From IMG/VR virus record IMGVR_UViG_3300031873_000046, positions 1 to 22,070 of that record: DNA of 22,070 bases. One strand, 5' to 3'. Both the position numbers and the translations under genes were made by a program. Positions within the stretch are counted from its first letter, which is position 1, and each line of letters starts with the position of its first letter. The stretch comes from a virus. Shown here one piece after another: positions 1-10,759 of the stretch. Below the pieces are notes generated by a model that saw nothing but the letters and a program-made list of their open reading frames with translations, was not told where the DNA came from and made no database searches.

Positions 1-6
1 ATTCAC

Positions 7-80
7 GCTACGATATTTCAATAGAAGAAAACCACATTGGTAATGTGGAAACCTGGGGGCAGTACCCAGTCGTAGCTCCA
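7..80 (+). tRNA. tRNA-Thr(GGT) with non-canonical elbow
   Basis: Complete cloverleaf. The acceptor GCTACGA (7-13) pairs perfectly with TCGTAGC (70-76), followed by discriminator T77 and an encoded CCA. The D stem is TTTC/GAAA, the anticodon stem CCACA/TGTGG encloses loop TTGGTAA (anticodon GGT, 39-41), and the T stem CTGGG/CCCAG is perfect. The T-loop is GGCAGTA (58-64) instead of TTCRANN, and the D-loop AATAGAA lacks the GG dinucleotide. All four stems are intact, so this looks like a functional tRNA with altered D-loop/T-loop contacts rather than a decayed one. It would read ACC and ACU. Standard covariance-model searches may score it poorly. Confidence 0.85.
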
Positions 81-86
81 TATAAC

Positions 87-161
87 ACACGGTGGGCAGG
101 AAAGATATGCACCACTCCTACAAAGTGGACTAAAGAGGGGCAGTACCTCTACCGTGTACCA
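87..161 (+). tRNA. tRNA-Val(TAC) with C33 and non-canonical T-loop
   Basis: The acceptor ACACGGT (87-93) pairs with ACCGTGT (151-157), followed by A158 and an encoded CCA. The anticodon stem CCACT/AGTGG is perfect around loop CCTACAA, giving anticodon TAC (119-121). The base 5' of the anticodon is C instead of the near-universal U33. The T stem AGAGG/CCTCT encloses GGCAGTA (139-145), the same T-loop as in tRNA-Thr and tRNA-Lys of this island. The D stem has only three clear pairs (GCA/TGC). Identity rests on the anticodon alone; the odd loop position lowers certainty about decoding. Confidence 0.75.
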
Positions 162-166
162 TGAAC

Positions 167-243
167 GTCCCTGTAGTGTAGATGGAAAACATCACAGATT
201 GCGAATCTGTAGATCGGTGGTTCAAGTCCACCCAGGGACACCA
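167..243 (+). tRNA. tRNA-Arg(GCG)
   Basis: The acceptor GTCCCTG pairs with CAGGGAC (233-239), then A and an encoded CCA. The anticodon stem ACAGA/TCTGT encloses TTGCGAA, anticodon GCG, reading CGC/CGU. The T arm GGTGG-TTCAAGT-CCACC is canonical, and the D-loop contains GG (184-185). Most bacteria read CGU/CGC with an ACG anticodon deaminated to ICG; the GCG anticodon here would not need that editing. Confidence 0.93.
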
Positions 244-251
244 AAGCGATT

Positions 252-340
252 GGAAGTGTAACCGGACAAGCGTACCGGAACTGAGTGCTAACCAGATTGA
301 CGCTAAACACGTTGGGGTGCAAGTCCTCACACTTCCGCCA
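252..340 (+). tRNA. tRNA-Ser(GCT), long variable arm
   Basis: The acceptor GGAAGTG pairs with CACTTCC (330-336), then G and CCA. The D stem is CCGG/CCGG with loop ACAAGCGTA. Placing U33 at 286 gives anticodon GCT (287-289). The anticodon stem has mismatches at its two ends (A27-A43 and A31-C39). A long variable arm with an ACG/CGT stem fits serine class II tRNAs. The T-loop is TGCAAGT, with G at position 55. It would read AGC/AGU. The weak anticodon stem makes this the least certain of the four serine tRNAs. Confidence 0.78.
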
Positions 341-421
341 TAAGAATGCCGTGGGTTTGAGACCGAAGCGAGTGAGTGCGGGAAGGGGGACCAGATTGAA
401 CCCTACCTACGGCAGGTTTTC
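341..421 (+). other. Spacer with imperfect long hairpin between tRNA-Ser genes
   Basis: This is an 81-nt gap in a tRNA run otherwise spaced by about 5-10 nt. GCCGTGG (348-354) can pair with CTACGGC (407-413), and GGGTT can pair with AACCC further in, so the gap could fold as one long interrupted hairpin. No cloverleaf could be built: there is no T-arm or anticodon arm in the right place and no CCA. It may be a decayed tRNA, a processing element, or nothing functional. Confidence 0.3.
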
Positions 422-510
422 GGAAAGCAAACAGGGCAAGCGCACCTGGACCGTCTCGAAAACGGATTGACGCTAACCACGTTGGGGTGCAAGTCCTCTA
501 CTTTCCGCCA
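422..510 (+). tRNA. tRNA-Ser(CGA), long variable arm
   Basis: The acceptor GGAAAGC pairs with ACTTTCC except C7-A66, then G and CCA. The D stem is CAGG/CCTG with loop GCAAGCGCA. Anticodon loop CTCGAAA gives CGA (457-459), for UCG codons. The variable arm has an ACG/CGT stem. The T-loop is TGCAAGT. Its 3' half is nearly identical to that of tRNA-Ser(GCT), so the two probably arose by duplication. Confidence 0.85.
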
Positions 511-520
511 TAAGTTTATT

Positions 521-606
521 GGAAGAGTGACCGAGAGGCTAAAGGTGCTCCCCTGGAAAGGGATGCGGTTACGGCCACGCAGGTTCGAATCCTGTCTCTT
601 CCGCCA
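521..606 (+). tRNA. tRNA-Ser(GGA), canonical elbow
   Basis: The acceptor GGAAGAG pairs with CTCTTCC, then G and CCA. Anticodon loop CTGGAAA gives GGA (555-557), reading UCC/UCU. The long variable arm has a GCG/CGC stem. The T-loop TTCGAAT and a D-loop with GG are canonical, unlike the other three serine tRNAs here, which suggests a separate origin. Confidence 0.95.
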
Positions 607-619
607 TTTGGAGAATATT

Positions 620-706
620 ATGAGAATAAATTGGGAAGAATTGGGGTTGGCCTGGTTGATTGCCGTGGGAATTTCCGCTCTCATCACCTGCTTCCTAGAA
701 AAATAA
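620..706 (+). CDS. 28-aa single-pass membrane peptide
   Basis: ATG at 620 lies seven bases after GGAG (610-613). The product is 28 residues: a short amphipathic start (MRINWEELGL), then a hydrophobic stretch of about 17 residues (AWLIAVGISALITCFL) long enough to span the membrane, then a charged EK end. It sits alone between two tRNA-Ser genes. No function can be assigned. Single-helix phage peptides of this kind often turn out to be inner-membrane modulators, but that is only analogy. The ribosome-binding site and the clean membrane-segment layout support translation. Confidence 0.6.
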   Translation: MRINWEELGLAWLIAVGISALITCFLEK

Positions 707-709
707 GAT

Positions 710-799
710 GGAAGTGTAACTAGGCAAGCGTACTAGACTCGCCTTGAAAGCGATGGGACGGTGAAAGCCGTTGGGGTGCAAGTCCTCACACTTCCGCCA
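710..799 (+). tRNA. tRNA-Ser(TGA), long variable arm
   Basis: The acceptor GGAAGTG pairs perfectly with CACTTCC (789-795), then G and CCA. The D stem CTAG/CTAG has loop GCAAGCGTA. Anticodon loop CTTGAAA gives TGA (745-747), reading UCA and by wobble other UCN codons. The variable arm has an ACGG/CCGT stem. The T-loop is TGCAAGT (777-783), with G55. Its last 16 paired bases recur as a fragment at 1423-1438. Confidence 0.9.
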
Positions 800-812
800 T
801 TTGGAGAGACAT

Positions 813-1379
813 ATGAAGAAGACATATCTAGAACTCTTGGCTGAAATATCTCAGCAGCATACAAGTGCTGATACGTCATTGAATCAGGTTTCAAGTGGTA
901 TCAGACACGCAGCATCAGGGGGATTGATAAAACCCCATTCTACGAATGTGGATGTTGGGGGTGGTAAGTATGATGCGGGGAAACATCACGTAGAGAAGTC
1001 AGTAGAGGGATCGTCTTTGCATGTATATGATCCCTACAATAGAGCAGAATCGCACAACATAGAAGTCTTACATAATCACGAAGGTAAAGCAGATTATGTG
1101 GGATTACATAATGTCCTCAATGTCATTAAGGAACCGGAGAATCGGGCAGAGGCATTACACACGGTGAAGAAATTTATGAAGCCTGGGGGAACCGCGCACA
1201 TTACGACATACGAAGGGGACAAGAGTGGCACGGGTCGAATGAGTAAGCAAGATAAGGGACGCGGCTCGTCATGGCAGAATCATCGTTCGACAAAGAGTTA
1301 TGTACCGGAAGTGCAGACCGCATTTCCAAACCATCGTGTTCATGTGCAAGGGAAGCATATTATCATATCGCCATCGTGA
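813..1379 (+). CDS. Class I SAM-dependent methyltransferase-like protein
   Basis: ATG at 813 follows GGAGAG (803-808). The product is 188 aa. Features of a Rossmann-fold methyltransferase are visible: a glycine-rich motif I (VDVGGGKYD, near residues 47-55), an acidic end of strand 2 (VYDPYNR), a motif IV-like segment (NVLNVIKE) and a late strand after a PGG turn (MKPGGTAHITTYEG). The C-terminal part has WQNHRSTKSYVPEV, which resembles small methyltransferase-like proteins common on phages and plasmids. The substrate is unknown. Its place in a tRNA island makes RNA or nucleotide modification tempting, but nothing in the sequence decides this. It is short for the class and may lack a full substrate-binding domain. 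Confidence 0.65.
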   Translation: MKKTYLELLAEISQQHTSADTSLNQVSSGIRHAASGGLIKPHSTNVDVGGGKYDAGKHHVEKSVEGSSLHVYDPYNRAESHNIEVLHNHEGKADYVGLHNVLNVIKEPENRAEALHTVKKFMKPGGTAHITTYEGDKSGTGRMSKQDKGRGSSWQNHRSTKSYVPEVQTAFPNHRVHVQGKHIIISPS

Positions 1380-1382
1380 TGA

Positions 1383-1402
1383 GGTACCATGAGATTTGAA
1401 TT
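1383..1402 (+). repeat. 20-bp direct repeat, copy 1
   Basis: GGTACCATGAGATTTGAATT occurs exactly here and at 1601-1620. It spans the start of a truncated copy of the gene at 1607. The two copies bracket about 200 bp holding a tRNA 3' fragment and a 53-codon gene. Confidence 0.95.
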
Positions 1403-1481
1403 CTCCGCAGAGGAAATGAAGAAAGTCCTCACACTTCCTCAATTTTGGAGTTATAATGGGTTACTGGCTATCAGAGTTTGA
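1389..1481 (+). pseudogene. Truncated duplicate of the 1607-1810 gene
   Basis: A 30-codon frame begins MRFEFSAEEMKK, clearly related to MRFELSDDDCKR at 1607. Similarity stops after about 12 codons, where the sequence turns into a tRNA-Ser 3' fragment (1423-1438) and then the ribosome-binding site of the next gene. This looks like a 5' stub left by recombination. It may still be translated, but the tail is not protein-like. Confidence 0.6.
1423..1438 (+). repeat. tRNA-Ser 3'-end fragment
   Basis: AAGTCCTCACACTTCC matches exactly the T-arm and acceptor 3' strand of tRNA-Ser(TGA) (780-795) and tRNA-Ser(GCT) (321-336). Downstream similarity continues loosely through ATTTTGGAG, matching ATTTGGAG after tRNA-Ser(TGA). 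The rest of the tRNA is absent, so this is a scar and not a gene. Confidence 0.85.
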
Positions 1482-1617
1482 CAGAATAGAACGCTACGCA
1501 AAAGCATGGGGCATTTCAGTTGAACATGCGCGAATTTATTTCCAACAGCCAGAACTCAGACGGTATTTTGAAGAGTCAGTGAAATTTCTAACAGTGCAAG
1601 GGTACCATGAGATTTGA
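1456..1617 (+). CDS. Small protein of unknown function (53 aa)
   Basis: ATG at 1456 follows TTTTGGAG at a short spacing. The product, MGYWLSEFDRIERYAKAWG and onward, is charged and aromatic-rich and predicted helical, with no membrane segment and no motif I recognise. Its last 11 bases overlap the start of the next gene in another frame. It lies between the two copies of a 20-bp direct repeat and directly after the tRNA-Ser fragment, so it may have arrived as an inserted cassette that brought its own ribosome-binding site. Confidence 0.5.
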   Translation: MGYWLSEFDRIERYAKAWGISVEHARIYFQQPELRRYFEESVKFLTVQGYHEI

Positions 1618-1620
1618 ATT
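1601..1620 (+). repeat. 20-bp direct repeat, copy 2
   Basis: Second exact copy of the sequence at 1383-1402; here it forms the start of an intact gene (ATG at 1607). Confidence 0.95.
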
Positions 1621-1810
1621 ATCTGATGATGACTGTAAAAGGATCAATGCGTTTATTCGTGAGCAGGATAAGGTGACCGGTGGGGAGTATGGAGCAATCG
1701 GAGGGGCATACACCTATCACTTCACTCCAACATCACTTGGAGTAGCAGTTGTGATTGAAAATACGGTGACGAAAGCAGAATTGGATCTCACTGATTATGA
1801 TAGTTGGTAA
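1607..1810 (+). CDS. Small protein of unknown function (67 aa)
   Basis: ATG at 1607 has AGGG upstream. The product begins MRFELSDDDCKRINAFIREQ and has an acidic helical start, a glycine-rich middle (GGEYGAIGGAYTYHF) and a strand-rich end (GVAVVIENTVTKAELDLTDY). The composition suggests a small alpha/beta domain. I do not recognise the family. A stub of its first 12 codons is duplicated at 1389. It ends 14 bp before the tmRNA. Confidence 0.6.
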   Translation: MRFELSDDDCKRINAFIREQDKVTGGEYGAIGGAYTYHFTPTSLGVAVVIENTVTKAELDLTDYDSW

Positions 1811-1824
1811 TGTAACAATATAAC

Positions 1825-2168
1825 GGGGGTGAATTAGGATCGACAGAGGCGTATAGAGAAGAACAGGACATGCCGAGGACCAGGACCTCGTTAATACTTG
1901 GAAAAACCGAATTGTCGAACAACAGTTTGCAATGGCAGCTTAATCCGCTGCCCGTTGAACTACCGATGGGCTCCTGTAGGTAGGGAAGCGTCATTCTAGG
2001 AGGCAAGTGATAAGGCTAGCATCTGGTTGAGTGTGTAGCCGCCAGTCAATTAACCGTACTCACATACAGTGCCATCCTGTATGTGAAAGTAGAAAAGAAT
2101 GGCTAGCATGAAAATCCAACTTTGACATTGCTTTTGGACCTGGGCTGCGATGCCCTGCACCTCCACCA
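1825..2168 (+). ncRNA. ssrA: tmRNA (SsrA), trans-translation RNA
   Basis: The 344-nt RNA has both ends of a tmRNA. The acceptor GGGGGTG (1825-1831) pairs with CACCTCC (2158-2164), followed by A and an encoded CCA. The third pair is G-U, the AlaRS identity element. A pseudoknot follows: CGAGG/CCTCG crossed by CCAGG/CTTGG. The open frame after it ends ...GAA CAA CAG TTT GCA ATG GCA GCT TAA. By analogy with the E. coli TAGTC|GCA resume site, TTGTC|GAA suggests the tag EQQFAMAA after the tRNA-borne alanine; the exact resume codon is inferred. The -AA end fits a ClpP-targeting degron. No SmpB gene is in the window, so host SmpB would be needed unless one lies elsewhere. Confidence 0.93.
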
Positions 2169-2205
2169 AATAGAACTCATCCACCATGCGTGGAAGTGAG
2201 CAACG

Positions 2206-2226
2206 GGACCCTCAAGTTGGGGGTCC
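2206..2226 (+). other. Hairpin between tmRNA and tRNA-Glu
   Basis: GGACCC (2206-2211) pairs with GGGTCC (2221-2226) around a 9-nt loop. No T-tract follows, so it is not a typical intrinsic terminator. It could guide processing of the tmRNA-tRNA precursor. The rest of the 2169-2236 spacer holds nothing recognisable. Confidence 0.4.
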
Positions 2227-2236
2227 TAGCAATTAC

Positions 2237-2311
2237 GCTCCCATAGACTACTGGCTAGGTCGCTAGCTTCTCAAGCTGGAAGATCGGGATCGATACCCGA
2301 TGGGAGCACCA
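2237..2311 (+). tRNA. tRNA-Glu(CTC)
   Basis: The acceptor GCTCCCA pairs with TGGGAGC, then A and CCA. D stem GACT/GGTC encloses a loop with GG. Anticodon stem CTAGC/GCTGG encloses TTCTCAA, anticodon CTC for GAG. T stem TCGGG/CCCGA has loop ATCGATA, with A at position 54 but T55-C56 kept. Confidence 0.92.
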
Positions 2312-2316
2312 AATAT

Positions 2317-2392
2317 GTCCTTGTGGGCCAACTGAACGGTCACCTGCCTTCTAAGCAGGATTATGTGGGTTTGAGTCCCACCGAGGACACCA
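2317..2392 (+). tRNA. tRNA-Arg(TCT) with A19-U56 elbow pair
   Basis: The acceptor GTCCTTG pairs with CGAGGAC, then A and CCA. D stem GGCC/GGTC has loop AACTGAAC: the usual GG is GA. Anticodon loop CTTCTAA gives TCT for AGA/AGG. T stem GTGGG/CCCAC has loop TTTGAGT, so position 56 is T rather than C. The A in the D-loop and the T at 56 restore a Watson-Crick 19-56 pair. Confidence 0.93.
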
Positions 2393-2396
2393 TAAC

Positions 2397-2473
2397 GCCG
2401 CTGTAGTCCAATTGTATAAGACGCCTCTCTCCTAAAGAGGAAATTGTGGGTTAGAATCCCACCAGTGGCACCA
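2397..2473 (+). tRNA. tRNA-Arg(CCT) with U19-A56 elbow pair
   Basis: The acceptor GCCGCTG pairs with CAGTGGC (one G-U), then A and CCA. D stem GTC/GAC has loop CAATTGTATAA, where the GG is GT. Anticodon stem CCTCT/AGAGG encloses CTCCTAA, anticodon CCT for AGG. T stem GTGGG/CCCAC has loop TTAGAAT, with A56. U19-A56 would replace G19-C56. Confidence 0.92.
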
Positions 2474-2482
2474 AAGGATATC

Positions 2483-2881
2483 ATGAAATTTTTTGATGAG
2501 CGAGAACGCAGGGACCCCAGCGAACATCAGGATATTATTTTTGTGTTTGGGTCCAATCTAGCAGGTCGCCATGGCGCAGGAGCCGCCCTATTCGCTCGCT
2601 ATTGGTATGGAGCACAATTGCGTATTGGTGTTGGACGCACGGGACAGTCGTATGCGATTCCTACGAAGGATGCAGAACTCAATGTGCTGACATTAGATGT
2701 TATTCGTTTGCATGTGTGGTTGTTTCTAGACTATGCCAAGAAGCATCCAGAGGAAGAGTTTTTTGTGACACGAATCGGATGCGGTTATGCGGGATACAGT
2801 AATCCAGACATTGCCCCCATGTTTCGTGGCGCACCTGAGAATTGTATGTTTGAACAGTCGTGGAAAGAATTTTTAGAATAA
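2483..2881 (+). CDS. A1S_2505-type phage protein (macrodomain-like)
   Basis: ATG at 2483 has AAGGA upstream, 10 bp after the CCA of tRNA-Arg(CCT). The 132-aa product shows FVFGSNLAGRHGAGAALFA (about residues 19-38), GRTGQSYAIPTKD, VTRIGCGYAGY and IAPMFRGAPENC. From memory this pattern belongs to the phage 'A1S_2505 family non-structural protein'. The GSNLAGxHGAG start and TRIGCGxAGY strand resemble macrodomain folds, which bind ADP-ribose-type ligands. A role in NAD or ADP-ribose metabolism during infection is inference only. Its stop codon directly abuts tRNA-Arg(TCG), so mRNA and tRNA lie on one precursor. Confidence 0.8.
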   Translation: MKFFDERERRDPSEHQDIIFVFGSNLAGRHGAGAALFARYWYGAQLRIGVGRTGQSYAIPTKDAELNVLTLDVIRLHVWLFLDYAKKHPEEEFFVTRIGCGYAGYSNPDIAPMFRGAPENCMFEQSWKEFLE

Positions 2882-2962
2882 CTCCCTGTGATGGCAATTG
2901 GACGCCGACCTCGCTTCGAACGAGGGCTTTATATGCAGGTTCGAATCCTGTCAGGGAGACCA
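2882..2962 (+). tRNA. tRNA-Arg(TCG)
   Basis: The acceptor CTCCCTG pairs with CAGGGAG, then A and CCA. The D-loop AATTGGAC has GG. Anticodon stem CCTCG/CGAGG encloses CTTCGAA, anticodon TCG for CGN. The T-loop TTCGAAT is canonical. The region between anticodon stem and T stem (about 9 nt) is longer than usual for arginine tRNAs. It starts at the base after the stop codon of the preceding gene. Confidence 0.92.
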
Positions 2963-2968
2963 AATAAA

Positions 2969-3042
2969 GGACCCTTAGTACATTAGCAGGACACCGCATT
3001 GACATTGCGGAGAGACAGGAGCATAACCTGTAGGGTCCACCA
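2969..3042 (+). tRNA. tRNA-Val(GAC) with A54/G55/T58 T-loop
   Basis: The acceptor GGACCCT pairs with AGGGTCC, then A and CCA. Anticodon stem CCGCA/TGCGG encloses TTGACAT, anticodon GAC for GUC/GUU. T stem ACAGG/CCTGT has loop AGCATAA. Position 54 is A and 58 is T, the reverse of the usual T54-A58. D stem GTAC/GGAC has one mismatch and loop ATTAGCA. All other stems are intact. Confidence 0.88.
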
Positions 3043-3046
3043 TAAC

Positions 3047-3121
3047 GCACCGCAAGCTTTAATAGTGAAGCTCTTGGCTTTTAACCATGAGAACACGGGG
3101 CAGTACCGTGGCGGTGCACCA
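3047..3121 (+). tRNA. tRNA-Lys(TTT) with non-canonical elbow
   Basis: The acceptor GCACCGC pairs perfectly with GCGGTGC (3111-3117), then A and CCA. D stem GCTT/AAGC has loop TAATAGTG. Anticodon stem CTTGG/CCATG (one T-T mismatch) encloses CTTTTAA, anticodon TTT (3080-3082). T stem CACGG/CCGTG has loop GGCAGTA, identical to tRNA-Thr(GGT) and tRNA-Val(TAC). U34 of tRNA-Lys is the usual target of 2-thiolation, relevant to the TusA-like gene at 12445. This is the last tRNA of the island. Confidence 0.87.
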
Positions 3122-3153
3122 ATCCCCAATCAAATCAACCACTTATCACCCAC

Positions 3154-3182
3154 TTGACAAACCACCCCGATTCTGTTATAAT
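3154..3182 (+). promoter_or_regulatory. Consensus sigma70 promoter, start at or next to an ATG
   Basis: TTGACA (3154-3159), 17-bp spacer, TATAAT (3177-3182): a perfect match to the sigma70 consensus. The expected start, about 7 nt past the -10, falls at or next to the A of ATG at 3189, so the transcript would be leaderless. It restarts transcription after the tRNA island for the ligase-RtcB gene run. Confidence 0.92.
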
Positions 3183-3188
3183 CTGTTC

Positions 3189-3449
3189 ATGGAATACAAA
3201 AGCCGCTACGATGACCCAGAGTACCAGGAGAGAGTGTCAAATCAGATGCTCGCCACCCCCACACTTGAGATAGCTTGCCGTGCCATTATCGACCTTCGGG
3301 CCGAATTAATGGAAAGGGGCACCCTCCTCGGAAAAGCTAATGCTAAGATATCAGACCTTCAAAAAGATTCAGATGAGTTGAATGCCTCAAAAAGACTTAT
3401 CATGAATATGTTTACTGGTGGGAAATTATTCCCAGGAGAACGAACATGA
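3189..3449 (+). CDS. Unknown protein (86 aa), probably from a leaderless mRNA
   Basis: ATG at 3189 lies 6 nt beyond a perfect -10 box, with no room for a Shine-Dalgarno site. An alternative later start would cut the conserved-looking N-terminus MEYKSRYDDPEYQERVSNQM. The product is helical and charged: a central helix (LEIACRAIIDLRAELMERG) is followed by a heptad-like segment (KISDLQKDSDELNASKRLIM), suggesting a small coiled-coil dimer. The stop overlaps the ligase start (ATGA), so the two are translationally coupled. No family recognised. Confidence 0.7.
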   Translation: MEYKSRYDDPEYQERVSNQMLATPTLEIACRAIIDLRAELMERGTLLGKANAKISDLQKDSDELNASKRLIMNMFTGGKLFPGERT

Positions 3450-4606
3450 TCGAAAAGACATTCCCTACATTATACGGGGTTTCTTCAAAGGGTGTGACGA
3501 AGGTGTGGGCAATTCGAGTGCTTGCAGTCGATAAGAACGCTGATGCTGTAGTGATTAAGGTTACACATGGACAGCTTAATGGTAAGATGCAAGTGTCTCC
3601 CGAAACAATTCGTGAGGGAAAGAACATCGGAAAAGCCAATGAGACAACGGCATATCAGCAAGCCTGCCTGGAAGCTGAATCGAAATGGAAGAAACAACAT
3701 GATAAGAATTATACTGAGCACTTGCCTGCGATTGACGCGGGGATGGGAAAGATCACCCTCAAGCTTCTGCCTATGCTGGCACAGAAGTTCAAAGAACGCA
3801 AGCACAAGATTGTCTGGCCAGCCTATGTGCAACCGAAGCTGAATGGGGTTCGTTGTCTCGTTGAACGGAAGAATGGAAAGATCACGTATTGGTCGCGCAA
3901 ATCGAAGCAGTACAAGAATTTTAATCTTTTCATGGATCAGGAATTTCTCAGCATCATGGAAGATGGAGAAATCCTTGATGGGGAAATGTACAATCACGGC
4001 GAGGTCACATTCCAAGAGTTGATGTCTCTTATCAAGGACGAAAAGCACCCTGAGATCGACAAACTCAAAAAGTATGTGAAGTTTCATTGCTATGATCGTC
4101 CAAGTGCGAAAGGTGGATTCAAAGATCGTTTTGATAGTCTGGAATGGATGAACTGGGTTGATGATGTTATTCAGGGACTTGAGTATTTCAGAATAGTTGA
4201 CACCTCCAAAGTTCATAATGAAGCAGAAATGCTACATAAGCACGAAGTATTCACCGCCGATGCTTATGAAGGCACGATGGTTCGCTCAGGCGGCGACGAA
4301 CCCTACAATTTCCAGTACCGAGACAATCAATTGCAGAAGTACAAGGATTTTCTGGATGATGAATTCAAGATCGTCGGAGCAAAAGAGGGAGTTGGATCAG
4401 CAGAAGGACAAGCGACTCTCCGTTGTGTGACGAAGGGGGGAAAAGAATTCGATGTCCGTTGCAAGGGGGAAAACGCAGTCCGAGAAGAACAATGGCAGAA
4501 TTGGAAGTCCTATATAGGGAAAGAGTTGACAGTGCGTTATCAAACGCTGAGTGATGAAGGTATTCCGATTTTCCCAGTGGGGATTGCAATCCGAGATTAT
4601 GAATAA
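3446..4606 (+). CDS. ATP-dependent DNA ligase with N-terminal WGR-like domain
   Basis: The 386-aa product joins nicks through a lysyl-AMP intermediate. Motif I is KLNGVR with nucleophile Lys131. Motif III is LDGEMY (177-182), IIIa is HCYDRPS, IV is EGTMVR (275-280) and V is LQKYK (296-300). A C-terminal OB domain follows (from about 305). Residues 1-90 (TLYGVSSKGVTKVWAIRV, EGKNIGKANETTAYQQA) look like a WGR-type domain rather than the all-helical DNA-binding domain of T4 gp30. A separate protein at 9976 resembles that missing domain. It would seal Okazaki fragments along with RNase H of this phage. The start is fixed by the ATGA overlap and by AGGAGAACG upstream. Confidence 0.92.
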   Translation: MIEKTFPTLYGVSSKGVTKVWAIRVLAVDKNADAVVIKVTHGQLNGKMQVSPETIREGKNIGKANETTAYQQACLEAESKWKKQHDKNYTEHLPAIDAGMGKITLKLLPMLAQKFKERKHKIVWPAYVQPKLNGVRCLVERKNGKITYWSRKSKQYKNFNLFMDQEFLSIMEDGEILDGEMYNHGEVTFQELMSLIKDEKHPEIDKLKKYVKFHCYDRPSAKGGFKDRFDSLEWMNWVDDVIQGLEYFRIVDTSKVHNEAEMLHKHEVFTADAYEGTMVRSGGDEPYNFQYRDNQLQKYKDFLDDEFKIVGAKEGVGSAEGQATLRCVTKGGKEFDVRCKGENAVREEQWQNWKSYIGKELTVRYQTLSDEGIPIFPVGIAIRDYE

Positions 4607-4883
4607 CGACGAACGAGACCTGCTGAATACATATGGGCCCGAAGCAATCTATGGGCCTAGTAGCATGGTAACGATCCAGGAGTTGAGAGACGTGTTGGAT
4701 TCTGGGTATTGTCCACAGGGACCCTGGAGAACAGATTTGCTAGAGGGGGTTCGGATGTTGAAGAAAGCACCGGCCTGTCCAGTCCACGCTCGAAACGGAT
4801 TGGCACTCTGCAACAAATGCTGCAAGACGATTCTGTGTATGAAGTGTGATGACATTAGGTGTCAATGTGAATTTATCATGTGA
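4599..4883 (+). CDS. Cysteine-rich, putative zinc-binding small protein (94 aa)
   Basis: ATG at 4599 overlaps the end of the ligase gene by 8 bp. The N-terminal half (ERDLLNTYGPEAIYGPSSMV) is unremarkable. The C-terminal third holds a cysteine cluster, CPVHARNGLALCNKCCK then CMKCDDIRCQC, able to bind two zinc ions in a B-box or ribbon-like fold. Such small zinc proteins in phages often bind nucleic acid or RNA polymerase. No family is recognised, and function is open. Confidence 0.65.
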   Translation: MNNDERDLLNTYGPEAIYGPSSMVTIQELRDVLDSGYCPQGPWRTDLLEGVRMLKKAPACPVHARNGLALCNKCCKTILCMKCDDIRCQCEFIM

Positions 4884-4891
4884 GGTATAGA

Positions 4892-5293
4892 ATGAATGTG
4901 GAAGAAAATGAGATCCAGGATCTGAAGGACGACTTGGCGGCTGCACTCAAAGAGAATGCGGTTCTCCAGGCCGAACTTCAAGAGGCTTACCGAGATAGAG
5001 GCCTAGAATATGTTGATAATGATAAACCGGTGTTTGAGCAAATGAAGCAGGAACTTGGTTTGTCACATAGAACGATAGGCCAGTTGAAAACAGACCTCGA
5101 CAACGAGAGGAAATACTATGCGAGTAGCGGTGCCGATTTGATGAGGGCGCTATCAATTCTTAAAAATCTACACTTGAATGGAAAGCCCTCGTGGAGGTTT
5201 TTCGAAACGAAGACTGGACAAGATGAATTGTCGTGGGCTAGTGAAAAGCTCAACACACAGATGAGTAAATTTTTTAAGGAGTATGGAGGATAA
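4892..5293 (+). CDS. Coiled-coil protein of unknown function (133 aa)
   Basis: I chose ATG at 4892 because TGAGG (4882-4885) precedes it by 6 nt; an in-frame GTG at 4880 is possible. Residues 1-35 (EENEIQDLKDDLAAALKENA) form clear heptads of a coiled coil. A second helical part follows (FEQMKQELGLSHRTIGQLKT), then a C-terminal segment with KPSWRFFETKTGQDELSWA. The layout suggests a small scaffold or adaptor. No enzyme motif is seen. It sits in a run of small early genes between ligase and rtcB. Confidence 0.7.
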   Translation: MNVEENEIQDLKDDLAAALKENAVLQAELQEAYRDRGLEYVDNDKPVFEQMKQELGLSHRTIGQLKTDLDNERKYYASSGADLMRALSILKNLHLNGKPSWRFFETKTGQDELSWASEKLNTQMSKFFKEYGG

Positions 5294-5296
5294 ATC

Positions 5297-5530
5297 ATGA
5301 TTGATACCAGTGCATACAAGGCATTTGCTCAGACAGAAACCATTTCGGATCTCGATATGAGATTGGAATGGAATCGAATTGGAGACCACCTGAAAGTGGT
5401 GCTAGCTAATGGTACACTCTTGTATCAAAGTTCTATTGGCTATGCGTCTCCGCAGTTGTCGGCACGGCAAGTGAAGTGGATTCAGGAGGACTATAACCGA
5501 AAGAAGAAAAATTATGTCTTCAAACCCTGA
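5297..5530 (+). CDS. Unknown protein (77 aa)
   Basis: ATG at 5297 follows TGGAGG at the end of the previous gene. The product contains a strand pair (LEWNRIGDHLKVVLANGTLL) and ends in a basic helix (VKWIQEDYNRKKKNYVFKP). The middle segment YASPQLSARQVKWIQ resembles small phage proteins with one beta-hairpin and one helix, but I cannot name the family. The next gene starts inside it in another frame. Confidence 0.65.
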   Translation: MIDTSAYKAFAQTETISDLDMRLEWNRIGDHLKVVLANGTLLYQSSIGYASPQLSARQVKWIQEDYNRKKKNYVFKP

Positions 5531-5813
5531 CTACCTGCCCATTCCCTTTGCAGAGTGGTATGAGACGAATAAGAAGGAATTGAAAGCCGAACATGCGCTC
5601 TCCAACAAAGAGAATAATACGAAGTGCGACGTGTGCAATGGTAAGGGATATCGGGAATGTGATTTGGGACACGAACATGAATGCGGTGAGTGTTATGGAG
5701 AGGGAACCATTGATTTGCTGTTTGAGTTTGCGTCCACATCATACATCAATCAGCGTGACGCCGACAAAGTGAAGTATCTTCGATATCAGAAGGAGATGGA
5801 AAATGCCAGCTAA
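5514..5813 (+). CDS. DnaJ-type zinc-finger small protein (99 aa)
   Basis: ATG at 5514 overlaps the preceding gene by 17 bp. Two CxxCxGxG repeats are present, CDVCNGKG and CGECYGEG, the hallmark of the DnaJ cysteine-rich domain; only two of the usual four are here. There is no J-domain. The protein would bind one zinc ion and may be a small chaperone-like or RNA-binding module. Its stop lies inside the start of rtcB, so the two are probably coupled. Confidence 0.75.
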   Translation: MSSNPDYLPIPFAEWYETNKKELKAEHALSNKENNTKCDVCNGKGYRECDLGHEHECGECYGEGTIDLLFEFASTSYINQRDADKVKYLRYQKEMENAS

Positions 5814-6978
5814 CGTCTTACAGTCAACGAATGCGCCAATCAAGATTTGGTCTCCAATTCACGAAGTCGAATCTTCGGCACTGGACCAACTCAAGAATAC
5901 TGCCAGTTTGCCATTTATTTTTAAGCATGTGGCTGTAATGCCCGATGTCCATTATGGAATCGGCGCAACCGTGGGATCTGTTGTGGCAACCAAGGGCGCA
6001 ATTGTTCCCGCCTGTGTGGGGGTCGATATCGGCTGCGGCATGATGGCTGCAAAGATGCCATTCAAGTCTAAGCGTTTGCCTGATAACTTGCAGGGCTTGT
6101 TTGACTCGATATCGAAGGCGGTACCGGTTGGACAGGATATGCACAACTCTGCGGTGGTACCGTTGTGCATGGTAGGTTATGAGTGGTTGCCTGAGAAGAT
6201 TCAGGACGATCCTATGCGTGTTGTTAAGCAGATGGGAACGCTGGGTGGGGGGAACCACTTCATCGAGGTGTGTCTGGACCTTGAAGAGAATGTCTGGGTG
6301 ATGTTGCACTCTGGTTCGCGTGGAATCGGCAACAAGATCGGGAACTATTATATCGATCAGGCGAAGAAGATCATGGATGTCGAGCAAGTCAAGTTGCTGG
6401 ACCCAAACCTCGCCTATTTGCATGATGGGACAGAAATATTCAATGAGTATTGGCGCGACTTGCAGTGGGCCCAGAGATACGCCATGAAGAACCGCGAGAC
6501 GATGATGGCGTTGGTCATGTGCTCCATTGCAGAGGTGATTTTTGGTGATGCGAACACTGTCATTGCACCTGAACTGACTATTTCATGCCACCATAACTAT
6601 GCAGAGAGGGAGGATCATTTTGGGGAAAATGTTATTGTTACGCGCAAAGGAGCCGTTCGTGCTCGCGTGGGTGATATGGGCATTATTCCTGGATCGATGG
6701 GCACCCGCTCATATATCGTTGAAGGCCTGGGAAACAGCGAGTCGTTCTGTTCGTGCTCACACGGCGCAGGTCGTGTTATGTCACGAGGCAAGGCGAAGAA
6801 AGCGTTTACCCTAGAGGATGTCGAGAAGCAGACCGCAGGTATTATGTGCCGTAAGGATGCTGGGATTATTGACGAATTGCCTGGTGCATACAAGTCGATT
6901 GATACTGTAATGGAAAATCAATCGGATCTTGTGAAGATCGTAGCACAGTTACGCCAAGTTCTTTGTGTGAAGGGATGA
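5803..6978 (+). CDS. rtcB: RtcB-type 3'-phosphate RNA ligase
   Basis: RtcB joins RNA 2',3'-cyclic phosphate (or 3'-phosphate) ends to 5'-OH ends using GTP and manganese. The 391-aa product has all hallmark motifs: MPDVHYGIGATVGSV, GVDIGCGM with metal ligands Asp75 and Cys78, GGGNHFIEV (Asn151, His152), LHSGSRGIG (His169), CHHNY (His263), IPGSMGTRSYIVEG, and SHGAGR with His320 as the guanylylated nucleophile. Length fits the compact class. No archease gene is seen next to it. Anticodon nucleases leave just the ends RtcB joins, so repair of host or phage tRNAs is the natural role beside 13 phage tRNAs; T4 does this with Pnkp and Rnl1 instead. It overlaps the upstream zinc-finger gene by 11 bp. 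Confidence 0.95.
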   Translation: MPANVLQSTNAPIKIWSPIHEVESSALDQLKNTASLPFIFKHVAVMPDVHYGIGATVGSVVATKGAIVPACVGVDIGCGMMAAKMPFKSKRLPDNLQGLFDSISKAVPVGQDMHNSAVVPLCMVGYEWLPEKIQDDPMRVVKQMGTLGGGNHFIEVCLDLEENVWVMLHSGSRGIGNKIGNYYIDQAKKIMDVEQVKLLDPNLAYLHDGTEIFNEYWRDLQWAQRYAMKNRETMMALVMCSIAEVIFGDANTVIAPELTISCHHNYAEREDHFGENVIVTRKGAVRARVGDMGIIPGSMGTRSYIVEGLGNSESFCSCSHGAGRVMSRGKAKKAFTLEDVEKQTAGIMCRKDAGIIDELPGAYKSIDTVMENQSDLVKIVAQLRQVLCVKG

Positions 6979-7031
6979 ACTTGGTCATCGAAACTCAAGT
7001 TGAGGGTGAATGGAAACGGATAAAGGAGTAA
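6975..7031 (+). CDS. Possible 18-aa peptide
   Basis: ATG at 6975 overlaps the rtcB stop (ATGA) with AAGGG directly upstream, and the frame MNLVIETQVEGEWKRIKE ends at 7031, between the ribosome-binding site and start of the next gene. It exactly fills the gap, which favours translation by coupling. It is too short for family recognition. Confidence 0.35.
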   Translation: MNLVIETQVEGEWKRIKE

Positions 7032-7033
7032 TT

Positions 7034-7306
7034 ATGCCACTGAAAGATGCACCACAAATTAACTCAGAAGATTATGCAGCCTGTACGCGAGAAGGCCTCT
7101 TACAGATCATTCAAGACTTGACAACGAAGGCTTATCATAATCGGCAGTTGTTTGAGTATTCTTGCATGGAACATGTGTATGATTTTCGAGAAGTGGAAAT
7201 AGAATTGTCCAGGGCGGGAATTCCAGAAGATGATGGGTATAGTTGTTATTCTCCAGGTCAACGAGTCGCACTCTTAGCAAAAAAAGTAACAAAGGAGCAA
7301 GTATAA
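7034..7306 (+). CDS. Unknown protein (90 aa)
   Basis: ATG at 7034 has AAAGGAG 5-6 nt upstream, so it is preferred over an in-frame ATG at 7010. The product begins MPLKDAPQINSEDYAACTRE, is acidic and mostly helical, with an amphipathic helix (REGLLQIIQDLTTKAYHNRQ) and a C-terminal basic tail (LLAKKVTKEQV). No motif is recognised. It overlaps the next gene by one base. Confidence 0.65.
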   Translation: MPLKDAPQINSEDYAACTREGLLQIIQDLTTKAYHNRQLFEYSCMEHVYDFREVEIELSRAGIPEDDGYSCYSPGQRVALLAKKVTKEQV

Positions 7307-7716
7307 TGGAACTAGATCCCTATTTAATGAATCGCCTGGGAAATTGCCAAAACAGGTATCAGAAATTTCACACGTTTAGGCGAGTCGTCTGTGTCTGTTC
7401 AGCAGGATTATTACGTTCGCCCACAGCGGCGTTTGTCCTTTCCCAGGAGCCATTCAACTGCAACACACGAGCCGTTGGATTGGTTCCAGAATTTGCACTG
7501 GTCCCATTAGATCAGGTGTTACTGGAATGGGCTGATGAATTTGTGTGTATGACGCAAGACCAACAGGAAGCCGTTCAGGAAATGGTCAAATCTATAAGTC
7601 TCCCCACTCCAGTTATTTGCCTCGATATTCCAGATAATTTTTCATACCGAGATCCTGAGTTGATGCGTATGATTGTCGAACGATACGCCAAGGCACATGA
7701 AAAGGATGCTAAATAG
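7306..7716 (+). CDS. Low-molecular-weight protein tyrosine phosphatase-like protein
   Basis: ATG at 7306 follows AAAGGAG. The 136-aa product shows a CX5R-S phosphatase loop, CSAGLLRS (Cys31 to Ser38), after a hydrophobic strand (RRVVCV). Later come a WADEFVCMTQDQ segment and DIPDNFSYRDPEL near the C-terminus, where the general-acid Asp of this family lies. This pattern matches the short LMW-PTP-like proteins found in bacteria and phages. The loop Cys and Arg are present, so activity on phosphotyrosine, phosphoarginine or another phospho-ester is possible. The substrate is unknown; it might counter host kinase signalling. Confidence 0.75.
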   Translation: MELDPYLMNRLGNCQNRYQKFHTFRRVVCVCSAGLLRSPTAAFVLSQEPFNCNTRAVGLVPEFALVPLDQVLLEWADEFVCMTQDQQEAVQEMVKSISLPTPVICLDIPDNFSYRDPELMRMIVERYAKAHEKDAK

Positions 7717-7918
7717 TCATACTATGGCACAAGGCGACCCAATAGTATTCACAATCCGAGATCGTATGGGATGGATCTGTCCAAAGTGTAACAGGAGTAA
7801 CTCGCCTGATAATTCGACATGCCAATGTAATGGATATTTTATCAACTACCCACCCGTGATTGATAAGCCATGCGAAACCAATCTTCCAGATCCAGCATTC
7901 AGACCAACGTGCAAATAA
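7706..7918 (+). CDS. RanBP2-like zinc-finger small protein (70 aa)
   Basis: A WICPKCNRSNSPDNSTCQC segment fits W-x-C-x2-C-x3-N-x6-C-x-C, one residue short of the RanBP2-type finger at the last cysteine pair. These fingers bind single-stranded RNA or protein. The rest is proline-rich. The start is uncertain: ATG at 7697, 7706 or 7724 are all possible and none has an ideal Shine-Dalgarno spacing; 7706 is chosen as a compromise and overlaps the upstream stop. A promoter follows shortly after it, so this is the last gene of its run. Confidence 0.6.
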   Translation: MLNSHTMAQGDPIVFTIRDRMGWICPKCNRSNSPDNSTCQCNGYFINYPPVIDKPCETNLPDPAFRPTCK

Positions 7919-7924
7919 TTCATC

Positions 7925-7953
7925 TTGCATTTTTGCGATGGGTGTGATATAAT
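7925..7953 (+). promoter_or_regulatory. Sigma70 promoter
   Basis: TTGCAT (7925-7930), 17-bp spacer, TATAAT (7948-7953). It lies 28 bp before the ATG at 7981, giving a short leader with AGGAG. It starts the unknown-rnh gene run. Confidence 0.82.
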
Positions 7954-7980
7954 GATGGACACAATAATTGAGGAGTAATG

Positions 7981-9090
7981 ATGAGTATTAATAGACCACA
8001 GACAACTTCAGATCGAGTGAACCAGCTTCTGTCTAAGTCAGAACCTTCATTCACCGGTCAACCCGTGCTCACCCAACTTGATATGGGATTGGCTCTGAAT
8101 TGGTACTCCCAAAACCGAGAGAAAGAACACTCCCACAAGTATCTCACCGAATATTGCAAAGAACAGAATATTAAAGTCAAAGCACGTCAAATTGAGGCGC
8201 AAGTATCCACATTGGGATTCATCTGCCGCATGATATCCCGTGGTGCACGTCTTGATATGAAGTCCACCGGATGGGTCAACCGACACATCGCTGATATGGT
8301 GGCATTTGTGGGTGTGTTGCTTGAGGACCCCAAAGAGACACCCGCCGCTCCCCCAAAACCAGCCACAATCCAAGACCGACTTAGAGCCAAATCCAGTGAA
8401 ATTATTGGCAAATTGGAAGGTGTGGTAGATGAGTTTATCTTATCGGATTTTAAGAAAGTCCCCGATACGCTAGAATTAATGCGAACGCACGGAGCCATTG
8501 GTGCACATGGGCCCAATATCGTCAATGTCTTTAAGCATTTCCGCGATGAATTTCGTCTGGCGATTTCGGGGAAAGATGCACAACTCACCGAGGGGTATGC
8601 CAATTATACTTCAGCCCAGATGAAAAAGATGGAAGTTCTTTATGACCAGATCATCTCAGATGCGCTCACTGTGATGGGGGATGCCATTGCCAACCGAGCA
8701 CCCCGCACCAAGAAAATTAAGTCTCCTGAAAAGCAAGTTAAGTCCCTAAAGTTCTCAGAAGAAGATCCTGAACTCCATATCAAGTCCATCCCTCCCACTC
8801 GTATAGTTGGCGCAGAAGGTCTCTGGTCCTATCATCGTCCCACTCGCATGTTGAGCTACTACGTGGCGGATGATGCCTCAGGCTTGGGAGTCAAGGGCTG
8901 TACACTCACCAATTATTCCAAGACTAAATCCCGCACCAAGAAACTTCGCAAGCCCGAAGAGATATTACCCCAGATCTTATCGGGTGGGAAATTGTATCTG
9001 AGGAAGATCATGGATTCACTGACTACGAAGGATGCCAAAGTGACTGGACGACTAAATAGTGAAACCTTATTAGTGAGGGCAATAGTATAA
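7981..9090 (+). CDS. Conserved-looking protein of unknown function (369 aa)
   Basis: ATG at 7981 is preferred over ATG at 7978 because AGGAG is then 5 nt away. The product is soluble, with no membrane segment. Three parts can be seen: an N-terminal helical region (residues 1-115, LDMGLALNWYSQNREKE), a proline-rich linker near residue 120 (PAAPPKPATIQDRLRA), and a helical domain followed by a basic linker (RAPRTKKIKSPEKQVKSLKF) and a C-terminal strand-rich domain (YHRPTRMLSYYVADDASGL). The basic linkers and its place before RNase H suggest a DNA-replication or nucleic-acid role. I cannot name the family. Confidence 0.75.
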   Translation: MSINRPQTTSDRVNQLLSKSEPSFTGQPVLTQLDMGLALNWYSQNREKEHSHKYLTEYCKEQNIKVKARQIEAQVSTLGFICRMISRGARLDMKSTGWVNRHIADMVAFVGVLLEDPKETPAAPPKPATIQDRLRAKSSEIIGKLEGVVDEFILSDFKKVPDTLELMRTHGAIGAHGPNIVNVFKHFRDEFRLAISGKDAQLTEGYANYTSAQMKKMEVLYDQIISDALTVMGDAIANRAPRTKKIKSPEKQVKSLKFSEEDPELHIKSIPPTRIVGAEGLWSYHRPTRMLSYYVADDASGLGVKGCTLTNYSKTKSRTKKLRKPEEILPQILSGGKLYLRKIMDSLTTKDAKVTGRLNSETLLVRAIV

Positions 9091-9092
9091 TC

Positions 9093-9944
9093 ATGATACT
9101 CGTGGATTTCAGCAATCTTGCATACGCCTGTATATTGGAAAATCTGGCTACAACTAAGAAAACTCAGGCCGATATTACTATTGTACGGCAAATGTTGTTA
9201 TTCTCATTGCGCTCTAATGTGAAGAGATTCAAGCGCGAATATGGTGAGGTAGTGATATGTTATGACGCCGACACTTACTGGCGCACGGACATATTCCCCC
9301 ACTATAAATATAAGCGCAAAAAGGATCGGGAGAATTCGGCGCTCAACTGGGCCTCCATCCACACATGTCTCGATGCGCTCAAGGCGGAATTCAAAGCGAA
9401 TCTCATGTATAAGGTGCTTTCGGTTGAGAGATGCGAGGCCGACGACATTATTGGGTATCTTTCGCATGTTCATGGGCCCACGTCAAAGATCATGATTATC
9501 TCTGGCGACAAGGATTTCGCACAACTTCAAGTCCATGCTCACGTCCATCAGTATTCACCAACACTCAAGAAATTGATCCGAGATGAATTCCCAAAGATTA
9601 CACTCAAGCAACAGATCATCCGTGGTGATTTTGGAGATGGGGTGCCTAACATACTTTCACCAGATGATGTGTTTGTGGTGGGTGGGCGACAGAAGCCCAT
9701 CATGGAGAAGAAGTTAATCGGTTGGCTCAATATGCCAATCGAGTCCTTCTGTACAGAAGGCGAGATGCTAAAGAATTTCAAGCGCAATGAGATTTTGATT
9801 GACCTGCGGAATATTCCAGTGGAAGTCAAACAGCGAATAGGCTATGCCTACGAGACCACCAATCCAGCCGGTCGTGGTGCCTTCTTGAATTACCTGATAA
9901 TGAGTGGGTTGAAGGATCTAGCCGCGTCGGTAGAAGATTTTTAA
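9093..9944 (+). CDS. rnh: T4-type RNase H, 5'-to-3' flap exonuclease
   Basis: The enzyme removes RNA primers and adjacent DNA from lagging-strand fragments. At 283 aa it is close to T4 RNase H (305). FEN-family acidic residues are in place: VDFSN (Asp5), CYDAD (Asp58), EADDIIG (Glu115, Asp117, Asp118), SGDKDFAQLQ (Asp139, Asp141) and GDFGDGVPNI (Asp179, Asp182). A basic patch after Asp58 (HYKYKRKKDRENS) matches the helical-arch region. It starts 3 bp after the preceding stop. In T4 rnh lies next to dsbA; here they are 8.4 kb apart, with insertions between. Confidence 0.92.
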   Translation: MILVDFSNLAYACILENLATTKKTQADITIVRQMLLFSLRSNVKRFKREYGEVVICYDADTYWRTDIFPHYKYKRKKDRENSALNWASIHTCLDALKAEFKANLMYKVLSVERCEADDIIGYLSHVHGPTSKIMIISGDKDFAQLQVHAHVHQYSPTLKKLIRDEFPKITLKQQIIRGDFGDGVPNILSPDDVFVVGGRQKPIMEKKLIGWLNMPIESFCTEGEMLKNFKRNEILIDLRNIPVEVKQRIGYAYETTNPAGRGAFLNYLIMSGLKDLAASVEDF

Positions 9945-9975
9945 TGGCAGTTTAACAGTTCCACGAAGGAGAATT

Positions 9976-10530: not shown

Positions 10531-10532
10531 TC

Positions 10533-10706
10533 ATGGATACTATTGAAGTGAAGTTGGTGAAGTTAAATGATGGTCGCTATGCACTCAAGTATCCTAAGAC
10601 TCCTGTGATCTATGATATGGAGGGATACTACTTCACACCTACGACGATGGATGTGAAAATTAAATTGACTGCCGAGCAAGTGGACGCCTTGGTGCCCAAG
10701 GAATAA
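10533..10706 (+). CDS. Unknown small protein (57 aa)
   Basis: ATG at 10533 has AAAGGTG upstream and follows the preceding stop by 2 bp. The product, MDTIEVKLVKLNDGRYALKY and onward, is strand-rich with alternating hydrophobic and charged residues and ends in a short helix (LTAEQVDALVPKE). It looks like a small beta-barrel or SH3-like fold. No family recognised. Confidence 0.65.
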   Translation: MDTIEVKLVKLNDGRYALKYPKTPVIYDMEGYYFTPTTMDVKIKLTAEQVDALVPKE

Positions 10707-10708
10707 TT

Positions 10709-10756
10709 ATGTTCGTGATATATCAAATAACCAATATGCTCAATGGGGAATCATAA
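10709..10756 (+). pseudogene. GIY-YIG endonuclease N-terminal remnant
   Basis: The 15-codon frame MFVIYQITNMLNGES ends in TAA exactly where GIY-YIG homing nucleases continue with YIG (typical start: IYKITNxxNGKxYIG). Nothing downstream resembles the rest of the domain; the next gene starts 4 bp later. It reads as the 5' stub of a lost homing endonuclease. GGGG inside it may now serve as the ribosome-binding site of the glycosyltransferase. Confidence 0.55.
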
Positions 10757-10759
10757 CGT

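What the first reader, a model, noticed from the sequence alone, without database searches (positions are those of the whole stretch)
7..3121. Co-varying, non-canonical D-loop/T-loop elbows in 9 of 13 phage tRNAs
Canonical tRNAs hold the elbow with G18-U55 and G19-C56 and a T54-A58 reverse-Hoogsteen pair. Here the changes look paired. tRNA-Arg(TCT) has D-loop GA with T56 (A19-U56). tRNA-Arg(CCT) has GT with A56 (U19-A56). tRNA-Thr, Val(TAC), Lys and Val(GAC) have G55-C56 with A18-G19 (D-loop AATAG, AAAG or ATTAG). Ser(GCT), Ser(CGA) and Ser(TGA) have G55 with a D-loop AAGCG that allows C18-G55 and G19-C56. Val(GAC) swaps T54-A58 to A54-T58; Thr, Val(TAC) and Lys have G54/G58. Stems are largely intact (a few mismatches, mainly in the Ser tRNAs), so this is not general decay. 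U55 and U54 are the sites of TruB and TrmA modification, so these tRNAs could avoid host enzymes that probe the elbow, or nucleases that recognise it. Position assignment in variable-length D-loops is my inference.
Basis: partly seen in the sequence, partly recalled or inferred. Interest (0 to 1): 0.88.

Follow-up and report, generated by a model that had tools for sequence, protein, structure and literature searches.

The report
Phage tRNAs with rebuilt elbows
Many tRNAs of this phage and its relatives replace the near-universal loop-loop contact that gives every tRNA its L shape with a different, matching set of bases, and the same swap recurs independently in accessory tRNA arrays and even in single-copy tRNAs of the ocean's commonest bacteria, so a textbook "universal" feature of tRNA has a natural second solution.

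Summary
Nine of the window's 13 tRNAs lack the canonical G18-U55/G19-C56 elbow, with matched changes in both loops. In 82 unselected tRNAs of this phage clade with a 7-nt D-loop (no alignment freedom), 79 obey one rule: A18 with G55 or G18 with U/C55, plus any Watson-Crick 19-56 pair (shuffles: mean 33, maximum 48). On trees built from stems only, 18-55 switched together in 17 of 17 independent pairs (p = 1.5e-5), G54 with G58 (p = 1.2e-4), A54 with U58 (p = 5e-4) and 19 with 56 (p = 0.03); two control column pairs were not significant.

The alternative elbow also fills a tRNA array of Chthoniobacter flavus whose sampled core tRNAs are all canonical, and the only His, Phe and Val(GAC) tRNAs found in a SAR11 genome, so it very probably supports translation. 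Phage tmRNAs also carry G55.

Shown: repeated compensatory exchange that keeps the D-loop/T-loop contact. Inferred: these tRNAs cannot receive pseudouridine-55 and often not m5U54 or Gm18, making them independent of host elbow enzymes. Nuclease escape and compensated drift remain open.

The parts
7..80 (+). tRNA-Thr(GGT), D-loop AATAGAA / T-loop GGCAGTA: A18-G55, G19-C56, G54-G58
87..161 (+). tRNA-Val(TAC), GAAAGAT / GGCAGTA: A18-G55, G19-C56, G54-G58
   Evidence: missed by ARAGORN
167..243 (+). tRNA-Arg(GCG), canonical elbow GG / TTCAAGT
252..340 (+). tRNA-Ser(GCT), ACAAGCGTA / TGCAAGT: A18-G55, G19-C56, T54-A58 kept
   Evidence: register from ungapped comparison with Ser AGAGGCCTA of relatives
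422..510 (+). tRNA-Ser(CGA), GCAAGCGCA / TGCAAGT: A18-G55, G19-C56
521..606 (+). tRNA-Ser(GGA), canonical elbow
710..799 (+). tRNA-Ser(TGA), GCAAGCGTA / TGCAAGT: A18-G55, G19-C56
1825..2168 (+). tmRNA; T-loop with G55 (TGCGAT), D-loop ATTAGGAT (AG or GG, register ambiguous)
2237..2311 (+). tRNA-Glu(CTC), ACTGGCTA / ATCGATA: G18-U55, G19-C56, A54-A58
2317..2392 (+). tRNA-Arg(TCT), AACTGAAC / TTTGAGT: G18-U55, A19-U56
2397..2473 (+). tRNA-Arg(CCT), AATTGTATA / TTAGAAT: G18-U55, U19-A56
2882..2962 (+). tRNA-Arg(TCG), canonical elbow
2969..3042 (+). tRNA-Val(GAC), ATTAGCA / AGCATAA: A18-G55, G19-C56, A54-U58
3047..3121 (+). tRNA-Lys(TTT), TAATAGTG / GGCAGTA: A18-G55, G19-C56, G54-G58
   Evidence: missed by ARAGORN
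5803..6978 (+). RtcB RNA ligase (tRNA repair) downstream of the tRNA cluster; context, not part of the elbow itself
   Evidence: Pfam PF01139, E 2.8e-124

Best explanation
These are working tRNAs whose D-loop/T-loop contact has been rebuilt by compensatory exchange. The usual G18-U55 contact is replaced by A18-G55, the outer 19-56 pair is kept as a Watson-Crick pair of any kind, and the T-loop closing pair U54-A58 is often replaced by G54-G58, A54-U58, A54-A58 or C54-A58. SHOWN: the two loops change together, many times independently, and the stems stay intact. STRONGLY SUGGESTED: the rebuilt elbow supports translation, because single-copy tRNAs of a SAR11 genome use it. INFERRED: the gain is independence from host factors that read or modify the canonical elbow. 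G55 cannot become pseudouridine (TruB), a non-U54 cannot become m5U (TrmA/TrmFO) and A18 is not the TrmH substrate, so tRNAs and tmRNA made in bulk in any host fold and stay stable without those enzymes.
For: Fixed-register test on the unselected clade: D18-19/T55-56 are AG/GC 39, GG/TC 29, GG/CC 4, GT/TA 3, GA/TT 2, AT/GA 1, GC/TG 1, AG/GT 1, GC/GC 2; 79 of 82 fit the rule, shuffle maximum 48. Independent-pairs tests on stems-only trees: clade 18-55 8/8; pooled set without pattern-selected tRNAs 17/17, p = 1.5e-5, G54/G58 p = 1.2e-4, A54/U58 p = 5e-4, 19/56 p = 0.03, two control column pairs not significant. Orthologues of one isoacceptor carry different elbows on nearly the same stems: Glu(CTC) at 91% stem identity, Pro(TGG) at 89%. 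Function: all 23 Ala tRNAs with G55 keep G3-U70 and stem pairing equals that of canonical tRNAs. In a SAR11 genome the only His, Phe and Val(GAC) tRNAs found have A18/G55. Driver: in the unselected clade, positions 18 and 55 (targets of TrmH and TruB) changed 14 and 19 times against 6 and 6 for the unmodified 19 and 56, although a plain Watson-Crick pair with a G-U bridge should be the easier one to exchange. The tmRNAs, which have no anticodon, also carry G55. In Chthoniobacter flavus, 20 of 20 sampled core tRNAs are canonical while 20 of about 21 array tRNAs have G55.
Against: No expression, charging or modification data. The A18-G55 geometry was not modelled. C. flavus and a Saccharibacteria genome have TruB, so lack of TruB is not a precondition. 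In SAR11 the link between alternative elbows and missing TruB is not significant (14 of 17 against 40 of 62 lacking it, p = 0.24). The D-loop register of the tmRNA is ambiguous in three of four phages. Many tRNAs of the same phages keep the canonical elbow, so there is no uniform pressure.
Confidence: 0.6

Rival explanations
1. Compensated neutral drift: auxiliary tRNAs on phages and arrays are weakly constrained, so their elbows wander among structurally equivalent solutions with no gain from the change itself.
For: Many different 54-58 and 19-56 solutions coexist. Arrays are patchy: 1 of 145 sampled Verrucomicrobiota genomes matches the strict pattern, and that one is C. flavus itself. Fractions vary from 4% to 100% between viral loci that hold at least one (most of these loci were fetched for holding one).
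Against: The A18-G55 swap needs two changes through a poor intermediate, yet in the clade it is commoner than exchange of 19-56, which has an easy G-U bridge. Single-copy SAR11 tRNAs use it, so it is not confined to expendable copies.
Confidence: 0.25
2. Escape from tRNA-cleaving defence or toxin RNases that grip the canonical elbow; RtcB downstream of the cluster repairs those still cut.
For: RtcB lies downstream of the cluster. Phage tRNAs have been proposed to escape tRNA-targeting defence by anticodon-loop changes (PMC10264068) or by supplying specific tRNAs (PMC11555353).
Against: I know of no anticodon nuclease shown to need U54, U55 or G18 (own knowledge). tmRNA, which has no anticodon, is altered too. 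SAR11 core tRNAs share the trait.
Confidence: 0.12
3. One ancestral odd tRNA multiplied and changed anticodon, so the matched loops are shared ancestry rather than repeated exchange.
For: Thr, Val(TAC) and Lys of the window share the T-loop GGCAGTA.
Against: Stems-only trees need at least 32 changes at position 55 in the clade, and independent pairs agree. Orthologues of one isoacceptor differ in elbow.
Confidence: 0.02
4. Not translation tRNAs but decoys, sponges or dead copies.
For: The Ser tRNAs of the window have weak anticodon stems. Staphylococcal cell-wall tRNA-Gly is a known tRNA that has lost EF-Tu identity elements (PMC9976931).
Against: Intact stems, anticodons, encoded CCA, Ala G3-U70 and use in single-copy SAR11 tRNAs.
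Confidence: 0.05

Closest known systems
Canonical tRNA elbow (G18-psi55, G19-C56, T54-A58 reverse Hoogsteen)
   Same: Same two loops, same positions, Watson-Crick 19-56 kept, purine at 57 kept
   Different: 18-55 is A-G instead of G-psi; 54-58 often G-G, A-U, A-A or C-A; no U55 to pseudouridylate. The elbow review calls psi55 universally conserved (PMC4810234) and the T-loop review does not mention A18 (PMC7912444)
Suppressor tRNAs with altered D/T loops selected from libraries (Steinberg laboratory; from memory, papers not in the library)
   Same: They showed that other loop combinations can give active tRNA in E. coli
   Different: Laboratory selections, not natural genes; whether A18-G55 was among them I could not check
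Accessory tRNA arrays on phages, plasmids and chromosomes (e.g. mycobacterial arrays, PMC5966550)
   Same: Clusters of accessory tRNAs, often on mobile DNA
   Different: No loop changes are described there (the word 'loop' does not occur)
Phage tRNAs with anticodon-loop mutations that escape host tRNases (PMC10264068)
   Same: Phage tRNAs differing from host tRNAs, possibly for escape
   Different: There the change is in the anticodon loop; the terms T-loop and D-loop do not occur in that paper
Staphylococcal cell-wall tRNA-Gly
   Same: Bacterial tRNA that departs from consensus in the T-arm
   Different: Dedicated to peptidoglycan and escapes EF-Tu (PMC9976931); here T-stems and CCA are normal

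Membership tests
tRNA (Rfam RF00005) | Cloverleaf scoring above the gathering cut-off | tested here: met
   9 of 13 reach 29 bits, including Thr, Lys and Val(GAC) with the alternative elbow; Val(TAC) and three Ser do not
tRNA (Rfam RF00005) | Complete stems, anticodon loop of 7 with U33, encoded CCA | tested here: met
   Val(TAC) and the Ser tRNAs fold by hand, with 3-4 of 5 anticodon-stem pairs in Ser
tRNA with canonical elbow | G18, G19, U54, U55, C56, A58 | tested here: not met
   nine of 13 window tRNAs differ at 18, 19, 55 or 56
tRNA with D-loop/T-loop tertiary contact | Positions 18-55 and 19-56 covary | tested here: met
   17/17 independent pairs for 18-55; p = 0.03 for 19-56
Translation-competent tRNA | Charged and used by ribosomes | not testable with these tools
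   indirect only: Ala G3-U70 kept and single-copy SAR11 His, Phe and Val(GAC) tRNAs with the same elbow
Substrates of TruB / TrmA / TrmH | U55 / U54 / G18 present | tested here: not met
   G55 and A18 in seven window tRNAs; U54 absent in four of these; modification itself not measured

The most novel reading that the evidence does not exclude
A18-G55 (with flexible 54-58) is a second, natural elbow code for tRNA and tmRNA that mobile elements and some bacteria use to make their translation RNAs independent of, or invisible to, host enzymes and nucleases that read the canonical elbow.
Probability: 0.45. Interest if true: 0.93.

Novelty: new variant of a known kind. Interest (0 to 1): 0.86.

Why it matters
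The G18-psi55 contact is treated as universal and is built into tRNA finders, modification biology and structural models. A recurrent natural alternative shows which parts of the elbow are really required (Watson-Crick 19-56 and a fitting 18-55 pair), supplies ready tests of what psi55, m5U54 and Gm18 do, and offers a natural route to tRNAs that bypass host elbow enzymes. Practically, ARAGORN finds only 69 of 147 such tRNAs against 90 of 92 canonical ones in the same loci, so phage and array tRNA repertoires are under-counted.

Tried and rejected
Chance and general decay: rejected by shuffles, stem completeness and tree-controlled tests. Shared ancestry of one odd tRNA: rejected by within-isoacceptor switches. 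A phage-encoded TruB or TrmA: none found in seven phage records, though these may be fragments. TruB loss as the cause: TruB was not found in 54 of 79 SAR11-family genomes, but the association with alternative elbows is not significant. RNase P RNA carried to match the new elbow: found in 9 of 43 tRNA-rich viral records, but phages without it have just as many alternative elbows. Named phages: a pelagiphage has a Gly(TCC) match; window Thr and L089 Trp queries gave nothing. No plasmid match for the C. flavus array. The strict His pattern was too narrow in SAR11. Literature: no paper found describing A18-G55 elbows, within an open-access library only. The amino-acid table for the pooled sets still contains pattern-selected tRNAs and was not used.
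Full report
WHAT IS THERE. The window is a 22,070-base IMG/VR virus record. Its gp32-like protein is closest to Synechococcus and Pelagibacter phage proteins at 47-49% identity, and there is no close DNA relative of bases 1-12000 among 50,697 phage records. Bases 7-3121 hold 13 tRNAs and a tmRNA. ARAGORN finds only seven of the tRNAs. A descriptor that demands only stems, a 7-nt anticodon loop with U33 and CCA, and places no condition on D- or T-loop letters, recovers eight. The remaining five (Val(TAC), three Ser, Arg(TCG)) were parsed by hand.

OBSERVATION. Seven are A18-G19 with G55-C56 (Thr, Val(TAC), Lys, Val(GAC), Ser(GCT), Ser(CGA), Ser(TGA)). Arg(TCT) is G18-A19 with U55-U56. Arg(CCT) is G18-U19 with U55-A56. 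Glu(CTC) has only A54-A58 changed.

RELATIVES. RtcB, ligase, gp32 and a FEN-like protein were used as bait, so the choice is blind to elbows. They brought in a clade of phages with up to 31 descriptor-positive tRNAs per locus, giving 201 distinct tRNAs.

COVARIATION. For 7-nt D-loops positions 18 and 19 are fixed by counting. In the clade (82 tRNAs) the pairs of dinucleotides are AG/GC 39, GG/TC 29, GG/CC 4, GT/TA 3, GA/TT 2, GC/GC 2, AT/GA 1, GC/TG 1, AG/GT 1. Of 49 possible column pairs, the highest mutual information is D18-T55 (0.86; maximum of 2000 shuffles 0.11), and D19-T56 is second. 79 of 82 obey the rule against a shuffle mean of 33 and maximum of 48. All four Watson-Crick pairs occur at 19-56. 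With relatedness controlled on stems-only trees, independent pairs give 8/8 in the clade. In a pooled set of 326 tRNAs, from which those selected by my search pattern were removed, the result is 17/17 for 18-55 (p = 1.5e-5), p = 1.2e-4 for G54-G58, p = 5e-4 for A54-U58 and p = 0.03 for 19-56. Two control column pairs were not significant. Caveat: pooled loci outside the clade were fetched because they hold at least one alternative tRNA, so frequencies there are biased; the clade set is not. Trees from 53 columns are weakly resolved, which is why only supported branches were used for the pairs.

REACH. Cellular hits are of two kinds. First, accessory tRNA arrays, mostly in Verrucomicrobiota: in Chthoniobacter flavus Ellin428, 20 of 20 sampled core tRNAs are canonical, while about 20 of 21 tRNAs of the array on contig C52 have G55. 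Such arrays are patchy (1 of 145 genomes with the strict pattern). That these arrays are mobile is inferred; their flanking genes were not identified. Second, single core tRNAs: in a SAR11 single-cell genome with 31 distinct tRNA genes found, the only His (AATAGTA/GGCAGAA), Phe (AGGAGTA/TGCGAAT) and Val(GAC) (AATAGTA/AGCGTAA) carry the alternative elbow. The same Val, and sometimes His and Phe, recur in 17 of 79 SAR11-family genomes. Pelagibacter phage Mosig EXVC030M, host HTCC1062, matches an alternative-elbow Gly(TCC) tRNA at 87%; its record annotates a hypothetical protein there.

FUNCTION. Alternative-elbow tRNAs have stems as complete as canonical ones, and all 23 Ala tRNAs with G55 keep the G3-U70 identity pair. 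Because single-copy tRNAs of a free-living bacterium use this elbow, it very probably supports translation; that is inference from gene content, not an experiment. The genome is a single-cell assembly, so a second copy elsewhere cannot be fully excluded. Phage tmRNAs of the window, L012, L032/L045 and L046 also have G55. The matching D-loop letter is clear only in L012 (AG); the others read AGG or AAGG and allow either register.

WHY. In the unselected clade the modified positions 18 and 55 changed 14 and 19 times, the unmodified 19 and 56 six times each. Pure drift would predict the reverse, since a 19-56 Watson-Crick pair can change through G-U. That points to pressure on the sites that bacterial TruB, TrmA/TrmFO and TrmH recognise (site assignments from PMC7912444 and general knowledge). 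In C. flavus, which has TruB, core and array tRNAs differ, so the trait follows the element and not only the cell. Seven phage records carry no TruB or TrmA that I could find. TruB was not found in 54 of 79 SAR11-family genomes; all five genomes with two or more alternative tRNAs lack it, but the association is not significant (p = 0.17-0.24). I therefore put independence from host elbow enzymes first, compensated drift second and nuclease escape third.

KNOWN OR NOT. The elbow review calls psi55 universally conserved (PMC4810234); the T-loop review does not mention A18 (PMC7912444). Papers on phage tRNA escape (PMC10264068, PMC11555353) and large phages (PMC7824862, PMC7162821) do not describe elbow changes in the passages I searched. 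Selections of suppressor tRNAs with altered D/T loops exist (from memory; not held), so feasibility in the laboratory may be partly known. I file this as a new variant of tRNA, not a new class of RNA.

Noticed in passing
L045:7742-8071 (-), L046:12919-13202 (+); also records G005, G006, G116 (below cut-off), G117, G129, G137, G138: Phage-encoded RNase P RNA (Rfam RF00010, 82-192 bits) inside the tRNA cluster of 9 of 43 tRNA-rich viral records; in the two aligned, the S-domain part holding P13/P14 is shortened. In G005 it lies directly upstream of Thr(GGT), which is where the window's contig is cut off.
   Followed up: partly
SAR11-family genomes G032, G036-G113: TruB_N (the pseudouridine-55 synthase family) was not found in 54 of 79 genomes, including large single-contig ones, while all 14 control genomes have it.
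   Followed up: partly
window 12445-12690: TusA-like sulfurtransferase (Pfam E 1.1e-15), a part of the tRNA 2-thiouridine-34 sulfur relay in bacteria.
   Followed up: no
window 12775-13284: HD_4 domain protein, possibly resembling small ppGpp hydrolases.
   Followed up: no
L012:6267-6338, L046:12797-12870 and other Leu tRNAs of the clade: Leu tRNAs with short (5-6 nt) variable regions instead of the long arm usual in bacteria.
   Followed up: no
L012:6267-6338, L009:889: Leu(CAA) with D-loop AATGCAG and T-loop TGCAAGT/TGCGAGT: the two loops share a self-complementary TGCA (L012), which could form a short kissing helix instead of the usual parallel contact.
   Followed up: no
window 341-421: Between Ser(GCT) and Ser(CGA) a stretch with complementary ends (TGCCGT...ACGGCA) but no Rfam match; possibly a degraded tRNA.
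   Followed up: no
MT647606.1 7774-7869 (L357:1489-1584): Alternative-elbow tRNA-Gly match in Pelagibacter phage Mosig annotated as a hypothetical protein.
   Followed up: partly
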